The position numbers and the translations under genes were made by a program. Source: Acidobacteriota bacterium (lineage in GTDB: Bacteria > Acidobacteriota > Blastocatellia > Chloracidobacteriales > JADJPF01). From it: a stretch of DNA of 64,000 nt. Positions 1 through 4,984 of this stretch are shown here, piece after piece. The notes under the pieces were generated by a model, which was not told the DNA's origin, did not search any database, and was given only the letters and a program-made list of their open reading frames with translations. The stretch lies in NCBI GenBank assembly GCA_016213785.1, contig JACQZQ010000129.1, positions 1 to 64,000 on the forward strand, in the 5' to 3' direction. Every line of letters begins with the position of its first letter. Positions within the stretch are counted from its first letter, which is position 1.

Positions 1-350
1 AACCTAGGCTTACGATAACGAGTCTTTCTACTACGTCTACCTCGTCTTACACCACGACGGTTATCTAAGCTAGCGTTTATTGCTTGCCCTCTATGCTCTA
101 CCAGAGCAGCAAATACTACTTGTGCTGTCGCTTGGTTAACTATAGCTAGTCCTGTTTTCTTACTTCCTGGGTCTAGCTTTACTTGATATGGTTGTAACTG
201 AGGGTCTGCTACAACTCGTTTTAGTATTATTGTGAATGGAAATTGGCGATAAACTGCCGCTTGTCCTGCTTTTAACAACCTGCGAGCTTGTCCAGGGTGG
301 CACATATCTAATGCTTGTTTATTTGTGTCTAGTACAAATACTTTTGACAT
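1..350 (-). CDS. iscB: IscB-like RNA-guided nuclease, N-terminal part (cut by window edge)
   Basis: An open frame starts with ATG at 350-348 and runs off the left edge after 116 codons without a stop. The translation has the order expected of IscB. First comes a short N-terminal PLMP-like domain (FVLDTNKQALDMCHPGQARR, then LLKAGQAAVYRQFPFTI). Next is a RuvC-I strand with the catalytic Asp in KLDPGSKKTGLAIV at about residues 58-71. An Arg-rich bridge helix follows (NRRGVRRGRRSRKTRYR, about 98-114). A GAGGT ribosome site lies about 9 nt upstream. IscB proteins are transposon-encoded nucleases, ancestors of Cas9, guided by an omega-RNA. HNH and RuvC-II/III would lie outside the window, so IscB cannot be separated from the HNH-less IsrB. 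No transposase is visible on this side. Confidence 0.88.
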   Translation of the reverse strand, partial: MSKVFVLDTNKQALDMCHPGQARRLLKAGQAAVYRQFPFTIILKRVVADPQLQPYQVKLDPGSKKTGLAIVNQATAQVVFAALVEHRGQAINASLDNRRGVRRGRRSRKTRYRKPR

Positions 351-600
351 AGTAAAGTTTACCTCACATTTCTGTGGTTATGTGTGCCTCGAGAAGGTTA
401 TTTGTCAGCATATTTACTAGGCACTACTTTTATACCCTTACAGTTGTTTAACCTAGTAATTCTAGTGCATGGGACTGGCTCGCATCCCAAGGTAGGTCTT
501 TTAACTTTACAAATAACGTAGCTACTTTTCAGTAACTTACTCCGCTCAACTGGGCTTAATGCTTTCACATCAAGCCAGCCTCTTTAGTGGCTGGTAGTTG
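351..600 (-). ncRNA. Probable omega-RNA of the IscB-like element
   Basis: This 300-bp gap between the IscB start and the receptor stop has no open frame but strong secondary structure on the minus strand, where omega-RNA sits 5' of iscB. Reading from the distal end there are two stacked hairpins: CCAGCC (594-589 side) with GGCTGG (580-575 side), then GGCTTGATG with CATTAAGCC (576-568 and 561-553, one G-U pair). A third hairpin, TGGGA/TCCCA (489-485 and 474-470), resembles the GGGA...TCCC arm I recall from known IscB omega-RNAs. A possible long-range pairing joins TAGTGC (463-468) to GCACTA (421-426). The guide should lie just beyond about 595-615. The exact 5' end and guide boundary cannot be fixed from one copy. 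Confidence 0.68.
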
Positions 601-650
601 ACAAATTATATTTAGATAAAATTATGTGTTTTGTCAAACATTGATTAAAT

Positions 651-3600
651 CTAAAAAGAGTACCGCACTGCTATTTGTAAAATTCTAGCAGGAAGCGATG
701 TAGCAACCGAGGATCCAAAACTAGGTGCTTCTAAAACCCTTACAGGAATAGCAAAATGTGTGCGATTAAATAAATTAAATGCTTCTAGGCGTAGCTTTAA
801 GTTTGTTTCTTTAATAATAAATTTTCTCTCAAGCGCTAAATCTAAAGAAGCTATGCCTGCTCCTCTAAAAGTATTACGTCCAACCCCTCCATTTTGAGGG
901 TTTGAAATAATTGGCCTTGCTAGTAGATTAATAAAGCTTGTTCCTTGAGCAAGATTAATTCTAGAACGACCTTTATCAGATAAAATAAGCCCTTGGAGAG
1001 TGTTTAAGCGATCTGTGCGATTGCCATCTAGGTTTATATCTAGACTGGTGTTAACCGTAAAGGGCTGTCCAGTTTGTAAGGTAAGAATAGTTGAAAGCTG
1101 AAAGTTTTTTAAGAGTTTTATCTTAGATGGGATTTCATATTGCCCTGCAAAAGTAAATCTATGGCGAACATCAAAATTAGCATTACCTCGTTCGGCTTTT
1201 AATCCTTCTTTTCGGCCTATTTCATCTTGGGCAAAAATAGGGCTTCCAGAAATATCAAAAAGGTCTGAAACATCATCAATTGCATGTGAATAGCTATAAG
1301 CTAGTTGAAAACCAAAACCACCATTAAACCGCCTTAAAAAAGAGGCTTGTAAGGATTGAAAATCTGACTTGGCAGAGTTATCAAAAATGCTAATTGCTCC
1401 TAATCCAGTAATTGGCCTTTGAGTATTTCTAAGTAAGGAAAGTAGAGTTCCGACATTACCAGCACTAACTATAGTTAGCGGAATAAATTGGCCTCCATTA
1501 GGGCTGCGAAACCTAAGTAAATCATCTCCTTTTGTACCAACATAAGCAAGTGAAACTATATAACGATCAGCAAAAGTACGCTCAAGCGAAACAGAATATT
1601 GATGAACATAAGGAGTTTTTAATTCTTTACTAGGCAAAGTAAAAGCTAGGGCAAATGGGCTATTTAATGCAAAAAGTGACCCCAAAACTGAACCAAGTTG
1701 ATTTGTTGTCCCATTAAGAGTGTTAGTAGTATTAGGACTAATTAAAAATTGTTGACCACTTCCTGGAAAACTAAAAAACACAAAAGCAGGATTAGCAACT
1801 AAAATAGTGTTTTGAATATTTGTAATACCAAAATTAACTGGTGCAAATTGAGGAAATAAGTTTCTAGATTGACTAACTATATTACCTAGTATTTGATCAT
1901 AAAAAAGTCCATAACCTGCGCGCAAAGAAGTGCGTCCATCGCCTGTTAAATCCCAAGCAATTCCAATTCTTGGAGCTAGATTGTTTTTATCAAGTGAGTA
2001 AATTTTATTTCTCCCAGCAAAAAATCTAGCTTGTGCATCAAAAGTAGCAAAAAAAGATGACTGGGCAAAACCATTAGCAAAACCTACGGGTAAGTTGTTT
2101 CTATCTTGTTTAAGTGCTCGCTCAATTTTTCCTGTAGCATCTGTAGGGACAGTATTAACCTCATAACGTAAACCAAAATTTAGGTTTAACCTTTTACTAA
2201 CTTGCAAATTATCGTGTAAAAAAAAGTTTGCTTCTAAAAACCTAAGCGCAATAGTTGAGTCAGGAGTTATAGCCAAGGCTTGAGAAATGTCTGAAGGAGC
2301 ACCAAGAGCAGCAAAGTCTGCTCCTGAATTAAAAGATACTATTCCTCGTCTAGCGTCTACAAAAGTGTTTGAGCTAAAAGTAAGCTGTGCTCTATAGCCA
2401 CGATCTAAAAAGCTATTAAGCTGGACTCGACGAATATCAGTACCAAATTTTATAGTATTTCTGCTAGTAGAAGTAATAAAACTATCTGCAAATTGAAAAG
2501 TATTATTAGCTCTTCCTTGAGGAAAAGTTAAAGTATCAACCCCTATTGGACTAAATGGAGAAAGATTTAATCTACCTATAGGGCCGCTACGACCATCTGC
2601 ACGACCATCTGAATTAATATCCATTATTGGATTAGTTTGAAAAATAAATGGGCTTCCTAGAACTTCTTTAAAGCTTAATGAAGTTCTACCATAAGAAAAT
2701 CTAATTTGATTAGAAATATTTTGGCTAAGTTCTGTATTAAGTGTTAATGCCAGGTTTTGAGTACGAGTTTTAGCATCAAGGCTTGAATTTATCGCCTCTG
2801 CAACCGCAGGTATACGGCTATCATCATCAGTAAAGTTATAGCGAATAGTAAAAGTGCTATTTTTTCCAAATAAGCCCAATTGATTATCAATTCTTAGAGA
2901 AAAAACGGTTCCCTGCCCACTTGCATCAACAATTTTAGAGAAAGTGTTGTTTCCATAAGCCCCACCAGGATTATTGGCTAAAGGGTAGAGAGCTAATACA
3001 TCTTGTCCTAGTAAACTAACTGAGTCTATAAAATCTTGGGCATTTCTAAAGGCTTGATTGCGTTCTAGCACAGTAGGAACGGCAAAATCTAGTTGTTGAT
3101 TGCGCTTAAGGTCTTGATGTTCAAATGCAGCAAAAAAAGCAAGTCTATTTTTTATTATTGGTAGACCCAAATTTCCCCCAAATTGATTTCGAGTAAAAGC
3201 ATTTTTGCTATCCTGAGTTCCACCTAAAAATTTTGTCTCAAAAAAATCTCTTGCATTAAGAGAAGAGTCTGTAAAAAAGTTATAAAACTCACCATGAAGC
3301 TTGCTTTCACCAGTACGAGAGACTACATTTACTTGGCCTGCGGTGTTTCGGCCTGCCTCAGCATCAGCAAGTAAAGTAGTAATTTGAAACTCTGTAATAC
3401 TTTCAATTGTTTGAGGACTTGTAGAAGTAAAGCCTTGACGACGTATTCCTATATCTTGATCATTATTATCCGACCCATCAATAGTAAAATTATTATTTCT
3501 AGCACGTTGACCATTAACAGAAAATTGGCCTGCGCTACCTACGCCTGCGCCGATGCCTGGGCCGTTACTGCCTGAGTTTTGAGGTGCTGGAACTACACCT

Positions 3601-4151
3601 GGAATAAGCAAAGCAAACCTATCAAAACTACGTATACCAGGAATAGGTAAAGCAGTAAGAAATTCACTAGTAGCACTGCCTCTTAAGGTTGGGTCTGCAA
3701 TATTTGCTTGTAGGAAAATATTTTGTGGGAGGTTAGCAGTTTGAGGTAAATTAGTTATTTGAGGTGAAGCAATTGGAGTTAACACAATTGGAGGGGGCTT
3801 AATTATTTTCTCTCTATTAACTTCCACTAGGAATTGAGGAAGCGAATTAGGTAAATAGCCATCGGCTTGAGCAGTAATATCATAAGTACCTGCTGGAAGA
3901 AAATCTATTCTATAAGTACCATCTGTACTTGTACGTCGTCCATAGCTAAAACCATTTGCAAGATTAATAACTTTTACTAGCACCCCTGGGATGGGTTGAA
4001 GTTGTTCATTTATAACCATTCCAACTAAAGTGCCTGTTGTAGTTTGTGAAGTGACAGGAAGAAAATATTTCTTAGAGTTTATAATAGCTTTGCAAGGTAT
4101 TGGCAATAAAAATAAAAGGATTAAAGCCAAAGAGATTTTATAAGTTCTCAT
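651..4151 (-). CDS. TonB-dependent receptor, Oar-like, with N-terminal carboxypeptidase-regulatory domain
   Basis: The protein is 1166 aa with a clear signal peptide (MRTYKISLALILLFLLPIPC then KA). Residues about 38-110 form a carboxypeptidase-D regulatory-like beta sandwich (GTLVGMVINEQLQPIPGVLV, then GTYDITAQADGYLP). A plug region follows (FSVNGQRARNNNFTIDGSDN) and then a long beta-barrel ending in aromatic RYSF, the usual C-terminal outer-membrane insertion signal. Receptors with this architecture are expanded in Acidobacteriota and import large or oligomeric substrates such as glycans or peptides. No substrate is indicated. The gene stands alone. It is divergent from the RRM gene across a 125-bp AT-rich gap and its stop is only about 50 bp from the omega-RNA-like region. 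Confidence 0.9.
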   Translation of the reverse strand: MRTYKISLALILLFLLPIPCKAIINSKKYFLPVTSQTTTGTLVGMVINEQLQPIPGVLVKVINLANGFSYGRRTSTDGTYRIDFLPAGTYDITAQADGYLPNSLPQFLVEVNREKIIKPPPIVLTPIASPQITNLPQTANLPQNIFLQANIADPTLRGSATSEFLTALPIPGIRSFDRFALLIPGVVPAPQNSGSNGPGIGAGVGSAGQFSVNGQRARNNNFTIDGSDNNDQDIGIRRQGFTSTSPQTIESITEFQITTLLADAEAGRNTAGQVNVVSRTGESKLHGEFYNFFTDSSLNARDFFETKFLGGTQDSKNAFTRNQFGGNLGLPIIKNRLAFFAAFEHQDLKRNQQLDFAVPTVLERNQAFRNAQDFIDSVSLLGQDVLALYPLANNPGGAYGNNTFSKIVDASGQGTVFSLRIDNQLGLFGKNSTFTIRYNFTDDDSRIPAVAEAINSSLDAKTRTQNLALTLNTELSQNISNQIRFSYGRTSLSFKEVLGSPFIFQTNPIMDINSDGRADGRSGPIGRLNLSPFSPIGVDTLTFPQGRANNTFQFADSFITSTSRNTIKFGTDIRRVQLNSFLDRGYRAQLTFSSNTFVDARRGIVSFNSGADFAALGAPSDISQALAITPDSTIALRFLEANFFLHDNLQVSKRLNLNFGLRYEVNTVPTDATGKIERALKQDRNNLPVGFANGFAQSSFFATFDAQARFFAGRNKIYSLDKNNLAPRIGIAWDLTGDGRTSLRAGYGLFYDQILGNIVSQSRNLFPQFAPVNFGITNIQNTILVANPAFVFFSFPGSGQQFLISPNTTNTLNGTTNQLGSVLGSLFALNSPFALAFTLPSKELKTPYVHQYSVSLERTFADRYIVSLAYVGTKGDDLLRFRSPNGGQFIPLTIVSAGNVGTLLSLLRNTQRPITGLGAISIFDNSAKSDFQSLQASFLRRFNGGFGFQLAYSYSHAIDDVSDLFDISGSPIFAQDEIGRKEGLKAERGNANFDVRHRFTFAGQYEIPSKIKLLKNFQLSTILTLQTGQPFTVNTSLDINLDGNRTDRLNTLQGLILSDKGRSRINLAQGTSFINLLARPIISNPQNGGVGRNTFRGAGIASLDLALERKFIIKETNLKLRLEAFNLFNRTHFAIPVRVLEAPSFGSSVATSLPARILQIAVRYSF

Positions 4152-4276: not shown

Positions 4277-4984
4277 ATGAGTGAACAGCGTAAAACCTTA
4301 GTTTTTGAAAATCTCCCTTTGGGAATAACTTCTTCAGAACTTCAAGATCTATTAGTCCCGCTTGGAAAAGTAAGTTGGGCTTATATAAAAGCACCTGAAG
4401 ATGGTAGGCATAATCATACAGGCTATGTTGAAATGGATACAGAAAAAGAGGCTACTAAAGTTATAGTTAAATGGAATGGTTTGGAGTTAAAAAACCATGT
4501 TGTTAGGGTTAAGTTTGTCCCTTCAAACTTTGATCGTTCATCAATGGGAGAACCTTGGCGAAATGCTAAACCACCTTCTTTAAGTAACGCTAGTGGAAAA
4601 GCTAAATTAGTTAAAGAAAAACGTTCTGAAAATGATACTGACAGGTTAATGGCAACATCCTCTTTAACTCGTAGTGAAAGCAGTCCAAACAAAACAGTTC
4701 AATATAGTAGGAGAGACTTAATAGAATTTAAGCCTGGTTTAGATAGAAATTCTAACTATGATGATTTTCCTAGTCAAGAACCTAGTCAAGAACTCAGTCA
4801 AGAACTCAGTCAAGAACTCAGTCAAGAGACTAAAACATTATCTGCTTTATCCTCTCAAGTAAAAGTTAAAACACAAGAGACTAAAAAAACACTTAAGAGT
4901 TTTACTGGTCTTATGGTTATTTTTGTTTTGCTAGCTTTAGCAGGCTTAAGTTATGCTATTTACTTTTTCTGGAGCAAAACATAA
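4277..4984 (+). CDS. RRM-domain RNA-binding protein with C-terminal membrane anchor
   Basis: The 235-aa protein begins with one RNA recognition motif at about residues 6-85: RNP2-like TLVFENLP and RNP1-like HTGYVEM, ending VVRVKFVPSN. RNP1 is atypical, with Tyr-Val-Glu in place of the usual Phe-x-Phe core. A polar linker of about 120 residues follows, containing a five-fold SQE-type repeat. The chain closes with one hydrophobic segment at about 209-231 (LMVIFVLLALAGLSYAIYFF) and a short SKT tail, so the RRM would face the cytoplasm from a tail-anchored membrane protein. Bacterial RRM proteins are usually short and soluble. The next gene follows after 27 bp. No strong Shine-Dalgarno is visible. 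Function unknown beyond likely single-stranded nucleic acid binding. Confidence 0.8.
   Translation: MSEQRKTLVFENLPLGITSSELQDLLVPLGKVSWAYIKAPEDGRHNHTGYVEMDTEKEATKVIVKWNGLELKNHVVRVKFVPSNFDRSSMGEPWRNAKPPSLSNASGKAKLVKEKRSENDTDRLMATSSLTRSESSPNKTVQYSRRDLIEFKPGLDRNSNYDDFPSQEPSQELSQELSQELSQETKTLSALSSQVKVKTQETKKTLKSFTGLMVIFVLLALAGLSYAIYFFWSKT
4771..4830 (+). repeat. 12-bp tandem repeat, five copies, inside the RRM gene
   Basis: The unit is close to TAGTCAAGAACT / CAGTCAAGAACT, repeated five times with one or two changes. It encodes the Ser-Gln-Glu-Leu/Pro repeats in the linker between RRM and membrane anchor. Such a repeat can expand or contract in frame and change linker length. Confidence 0.9.

What the first reader, a model, noticed from the sequence alone, without database searches (positions are those of the whole stretch)
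1..350. IscB-like RNA-guided nuclease at the window edge
A truncated open frame contains the PLMP-like N-terminus, RuvC-I Asp motif and Arg-rich bridge helix of IscB. It lies in a chromosome otherwise free of visible transposases here, so it may be a stand-alone or domesticated copy. Whether HNH is present cannot be seen.
Basis: partly seen in the sequence, partly recalled or inferred. Interest (0 to 1): 0.72.

Follow-up and report, generated by a model that had tools for sequence, protein, structure and literature searches.

The report
Mobile IscB element cut by contig end
The window edge carries the first quarter of a genuine IscB RNA-guided nuclease gene and its guide RNA, part of a jumping element that looks truncated only because the assembly breaks there; the element sits exactly in front of a neighbouring gene's start codon, a landing habit that turns out to be common among IscB elements.

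Summary
Window 350->3 (minus strand) encodes the first 116 residues of IscB, and a full-length HEARO (omega) RNA lies just upstream at 602->377. The frame stops because window base 1 is also the first base of contig C112.

The other side is contig C65 of the same genome, which starts inside iscB (RuvC-III plus C-terminal domain) and continues into a kinase gene. A same-genus genome has the two flanking genes side by side with nothing between them, which shows both the linkage and an insertion. About 490 bp, covering RuvC-II and HNH, are not assembled; full-length copies in the same-genus genome, 72-80% identical over the two visible pieces, have HNH.

So this is a mobile ISC/IscB-omegaRNA element, not a domesticated or lone copy. 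The genome holds several more, including HEARO-only copies with exact empty sites in the relative and no target duplication.

One less obvious property emerged. The elements insert just before RTGA, often a host start codon (32 of 60 elements in other genomes, against 5-6% of background RTGA sites), and many carry a Shine-Dalgarno at that end. The element is a new member of a known kind; start-codon docking may be under-described.

The parts
1..350 (-). 5' part of iscB (116 codons, ATG at 350-348): PLMP-type domain, RuvC-I, start of bridge helix; cut by the contig end. Continues on G000:C65:2-460 after a gap of about 490 bp.
377..602 (-). HEARO / omega RNA (RF02033), full length; its 5' end coincides with the left end of the element (GTCAACTACC...)
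   Evidence: 116 bits, model 1-211; element end shown exactly on the C57 and C109 copies
603..622 (-). left flank = predicted guide segment of the omega RNA (5'-ATTTTATCTAAATATAATTT-3'); exact guide length not determined
   Evidence: position directly 5' of the HEARO RNA; guide at the 5' end of HEARO RNAs per PMC9755519
651..4151 (-). flanking host gene (1166 aa, outer-membrane-type protein); its orthologue lies beside the kinase gene in G001, marking the empty site

Best explanation
This is an ISC-type mobile element: omega RNA (HEARO) followed by iscB between two transposon ends, inserted between a kinase gene and an outer-membrane-type protein gene of a Blastocatellia (Acidobacteriota) chromosome. 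Shown here: identity of gene and RNA, both ends, both flanks, an empty orthologous site, further copies in the genome, and insertion immediately 5' of the kinase start codon (ATGA). Inferred from the characterised family: IscB binds the omega RNA, whose 5' guide is copied from the left flank, and cuts DNA carrying guide + RTGA, i.e. the allele left empty when the element is excised; repair from a sister chromosome then restores the element. Movement is probably by an IS200/IS605 TnpA acting in trans. Landing just before start codons, often with an element-borne Shine-Dalgarno, would make insertions nearly silent for the host gene.
For: IscB and HEARO matches; contig end; C65 continuation with RuvC-III; empty site in G001; exact empty sites of the HEARO-only copies C57 and C109, and a second iscB element C25+C100 with an empty site; repeated iscB 3' ends C107/C100/C76; left junction reads guide|GTCA, not RTGA, and no better target occurs in the genome; IS605 copy with a near-identical end hairpin next to ATGA.
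Against: RuvC-II and HNH of this copy are not in the assembly, so an internal deletion or frameshift cannot be excluded. No tnpA in the visible element. Nuclease activity, guide length and TAM were not tested. The intergenic DNA next to the left end has diverged from G001, so this left junction rests on comparison with sibling copies.
Confidence: 0.9

Rival explanations
1. A domesticated or stand-alone IscB kept for a host function.
For: No transposase gene in the visible part of the element.
Against: Empty orthologous site in the same genus; several copies in the genome; intact element ends; sibling elements inserted at unrelated sites.
Confidence: 0.03
2. A decaying remnant: an iscB with its middle (RuvC-II/HNH) deleted or broken, mobilised, if at all, by other copies.
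For: About 490 bp between C112 and C65 are unseen; HEARO-only copies and broken iscB fragments (C99, C125) exist in the genome.
Against: Both visible parts (116 and 152 codons) are open; the missing length is set by alignment to intact copies only, but an assembly break there is what several near-identical copies would cause.
Confidence: 0.15
3. For the docking pattern: insertion at start codons is merely survivorship of RTGA insertions that do not break genes, with no contribution from the element's own end.
For: 9 of 35 curated junctions do lie inside called genes, so gene-disrupting insertions occur; RTGA by itself coincides with some start codons; the tail of the focal copy is a poor ribosome binding site.
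Against: Even among non-disruptive RTGA sites only 15.9% are gene starts, against 18 of 26 elements (p=1.8e-9); held-out set 14 of 25 against 6.0% of all RTGA. Element tails pair with the anti-SD better than their shuffles, also at insertions not at gene starts.
Confidence: 0.4

Closest known systems
IscB / HEARO (OMEGA) RNA-guided nucleases, e.g. OgeuIscB (PDB 7XHT, 7UTN), HEARO MG35-1 (PMC9755519)
   Same: RRXRR/PLMP N-terminus, RuvC-I, bridge helix, RuvC-III, C-terminal domain; HEARO RNA directly upstream; same-genus copies have HNH.
   Different: Distant in sequence from the solved ones (best PDB match of the same-genus homologue TbaIscB, E=2.3e-42); HNH not visible in this copy; PLMP position reads ALDM.
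IsrB (OMEGA nickase, PMC9581776)
   Same: PLMP, RuvC, bridge helix, omega RNA; published TAM NTGA agrees with the RTGA at these right ends.
   Different: IsrB lacks HNH; the closest relatives here have it.
IS200/IS605 elements
   Same: Subterminal hairpin, fixed tetranucleotide at one end, no target duplication; the genome's own IS605 copy at C76:84.8 kb has an end hairpin sharing 28 of 29 aligned bases and also abuts ATGA.
   Different: No tnpA in the visible element; iscB in place of tnpB, with the guide taken from the flank on the omega RNA side.

Membership tests
IscB | PLMP-type N-terminus, RuvC-I Asp and Arg-rich bridge helix | tested here: met
IscB | RuvC-III and C-terminal domain | tested here: met
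   on contig C65, linked by the empty site in G001; no Pfam family was hit there, NF040563 positions 284-314 were
IscB | RuvC-II and HNH domain | tested here: inconclusive
   falls in the assembly gap; present in same-genus full-length homologues
IscB | omega (HEARO) RNA directly upstream | tested here: met
   RF02033 at 602..377, 116 bits
IscB | RNA-guided DNA cleavage | not testable with these tools
   needs an assay
IS200/IS605-type (ISC) mobile element | precise insertion without target duplication at a fixed short motif | tested here: met
   exact empty sites for C57 and C109; focal and C25+C100 sites consistent
IS200/IS605-type (ISC) mobile element | TnpA transposase in the element | tested here: not met
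   none in the visible parts; TnpA genes elsewhere in the genome. Published HEARO/IscB loci rarely carry it either (PMC9755519)
IsrB | no HNH domain | tested here: inconclusive
   not visible in this copy; relatives have HNH
Cas9 | match to Cas9 family models above cut-off | tested here: not met
   same-genus homologue scores 446.9 bits to IscB and 34.3 to Cas9 (cut-off 100)

The most novel reading that the evidence does not exclude
IscB-omegaRNA elements as a class dock at start codons. Their target/TAM (RTGA) is a start codon plus one base. They insert seamlessly in front of it, and many carry their own Shine-Dalgarno at that end (e.g. AGGAGGTTTGT|GTGA, AAGGAGGTAGAAAG|ATGA). In some copies iscB ends in an ATGA stop/start overlap with the host gene. 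The host gene would then be translated from, or coupled to, the element, making insertion nearly neutral and excision scar-free.
Probability: 0.5. Interest if true: 0.6.

Novelty: new member of a known kind. Interest (0 to 1): 0.42.

Why it matters
The element itself adds one more Acidobacteriota lineage to the IscB record. The more useful result is the landing pattern. If the TAM is a start codon and the element supplies a ribosome binding site, that would explain how these elements spread without silencing genes, and it predicts which host genes are expressed from an omegaRNA/iscB transcript. Both can be tested with ordinary reporters. The exact empty sites also give native guide+TAM targets for a cleavage assay.

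Tried and rejected
NF040563 hits at profile positions ~183-243 on C2, C21 and C39 and in all relatives look like ordinary HNH endonucleases, not IscB: the match covers only that stretch, and 9 of 14 control genomes also gave sub-cut-off hits to this model. The missing ~490 bp were sought with the same-genus protein and are not in the assembly. A domesticated or lone IscB was rejected (empty site, many copies). Weinberg 2009, Kapitonov 2016, Altae-Tran 2021 and Meers 2023 are not in the library; from memory, HEARO integration next to ATGA/GTGA and stand-alone omega RNAs were already reported there. In the docking test five curated loci had no recognisable right end and were left out (L111, L113, L119, L128, L156), and four of the 35 curated junctions read ATGG rather than RTGA. 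An automatic right-end rule agreed with the curated ends in 20 of 35 cases (ten not found, five shifted), so the curated and the automatic held-out tests are reported separately.

Full report
What is in the window. The minus-strand frame 350->3 is open for 116 codons and runs into window base 1. It matches Pfam RRXRR (E=1.4e-38) and the NCBIfam IscB model from its first position (E=2.5e-41). The RuvC-I motif KLDPGSK and an Arg-rich bridge helix are present; the PLMP position reads ALDM, as in its nearest relatives. Immediately upstream on the same strand, 602->377, lies a full-length HEARO RNA (RF02033, 116 bits, gathering score 83).

Why it is cut. The window is G000:C112:1-64000, so base 1 is the end of a contig. 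Contig C65 of the same genome starts inside an iscB: 152 residues in one open frame that begins just before the RuvC-III motif AHWIDAACVG and ends in a normal stop. A same-genus genome (G001; its IscB contig is deposited as Blastocatellia bacterium nzgw73) has on one contig the orthologue of the kinase gene that follows iscB on C65, directly beside the orthologue of the window's gene 651-4151, with no element between them. C65 and C112 are therefore the two sides of one element. Residues ~117-280 (about 490 bp: rest of the bridge helix, RuvC-II, HNH) are not assembled. Both complete same-genus IscBs (444 aa), 72-80% identical to the two visible pieces, carry the HNH region, and the one scanned matches Pfam HNH. 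A break inside iscB is what several near-identical copies would cause: contigs C107, C100 and C76 end in the same last ~140 bp of a second iscB lineage, with a single base changed in the C76 copy.

It is a mobile element, not a domesticated gene. The genome has six HEARO matches by covariance model (four above the gathering score) and further fragments by DNA similarity. Two HEARO-only copies were checked to the base. The 369-bp copy on C57 is absent from G001:C506, where bases 8641 and 8642 align to the last base before and the first base after the element. The 384-bp copy on C109 is absent from G001:C259. A second iscB element is recovered by joining the left flank on C25 to the right flank on C100; the joined flanks align continuously to G001:C413. 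None of these shows a target duplication. For the focal element the immediate junction agrees (ATAATTT|ATGAAATC here, ATTATTT|ATGAAATC in G001), while the intergenic DNA further left has diverged.

Ends and likely mechanism. Left ends read GTCA or GTAA; right ends follow a subterminal hairpin and stop before RTGA in most copies. The published IsrB TAM is NTGA, with cutting shown at TTGA and ATGA (PMC9581776), and the guide lies at the 5' end of HEARO RNAs (PMC9755519). By homology, the focal omega RNA carries the left flank (...TATCTAAATATAATTT) as guide and would cut guide+RTGA, i.e. the empty allele. At the occupied site the guide is followed by GTCA, and a scan of the genome with up to three mismatches finds no closer match than the element's own junction. 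Cleavage and retention are inferred, not tested. No tnpA lies in the visible element, but four full-length IS200/IS605 TnpA genes exist in the genome (three of them scored by the IS200/IS605 model). The IS605 copy at C76:84.8 kb ends in a hairpin sharing 28 of 29 aligned bases with the right end of the second iscB lineage, and it also abuts ATGA, so it is a plausible mobiliser in trans (inference).

Docking at start codons. In this genome the right junction is the start codon of an 801-codon kinase frame (focal), another kinase gene (C107), a response-regulator gene (C100), a 123-codon gene (C57) and a kinase gene (C109); C76 and C125 are not at gene starts. In G001 one copy sits at the start of a histidinol-dehydrogenase-like gene and one at a GTGA of unclear status. 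To test whether this is general, 80 IscB loci were taken from genome contigs and 80 from viral contigs. All 40 genome loci scanned have HEARO directly upstream. For 35 both ends could be set by eye, and joining the flanks gives the empty site. In 18 of 35 the junction codon starts an ORF of at least 80 codons with an upstream stop within 30 codons, against 4.9% of other RTGA sites in the same flanks (p=6e-15). Restricted to sites that do not break a called gene it is 18 of 26 against 15.9% (p=1.8e-9). An automatic rule on held-out loci gives 14 of 25 against 6.0% (p=1.7e-11). Copies from one genome are not independent, and gene calls are simple ORFs, so the p-values are indicative only.

Element-borne Shine-Dalgarno. 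The last 20 nt of the 35 curated elements pair with the anti-SD sequence better than their own shuffles (mean -6.1 against -3.4 kcal/mol, p=6e-5), also when the insertion is not at a gene start (p=0.017), so the motif belongs to the element. Clear cases are cyanobacterial: AGGAGGTTTGT|GTGA, GGAGGAGGTTTAG|ATGA, AAGGAGGTAGAAAG|ATGA. In C107, C100 and G001:C82 the tail is GGAGATTT|ATGA, and the iscB stop codon TGA is supplied by the target, giving a 4-base stop/start overlap with the host gene. The focal copy is weaker: TAAGAAGG directly against ATG. Translation of host genes from these ends is a hypothesis.

Comparison with the known. The nuclease, the omega RNA, HEARO-only copies and the ATGA/GTGA neighbourhood are known for this family (the last two from memory; those papers were not held). 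No held paper was found that describes start-codon docking or an element-borne ribosome binding site, but the library is incomplete. Verdict: a real, ordinary IscB element at a contig edge, a new member of a known kind, with a quantified insertion habit worth a specialist's look.

Noticed in passing
G000:C51:39234-40937 (locus L014): A weak HEARO match (29 bits, below gathering) lies shortly after a CRISPR array (repeat GTTGAATGGCTTATCGAACCTATGAGGAATTGAAAC) and a cas6-like frame.
   Followed up: no
G000:C75:158838-158902, C76:45334-45442, C33 end, C95 start: Further HEARO 5' pieces; those on C33 and C95 are cut by contig ends and may belong to complete elements, the other two look like remnants.
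   Followed up: partly
L058 (G001:C225), about 585-866: This iscB copy is interrupted near its 3' end by a stretch of roughly 150 bp, after which the usual element end resumes.
   Followed up: no
window 4277-4984: Small protein with an RRM-like N-terminus and a C-terminal hydrophobic helix (read from the sequence only).
   Followed up: no
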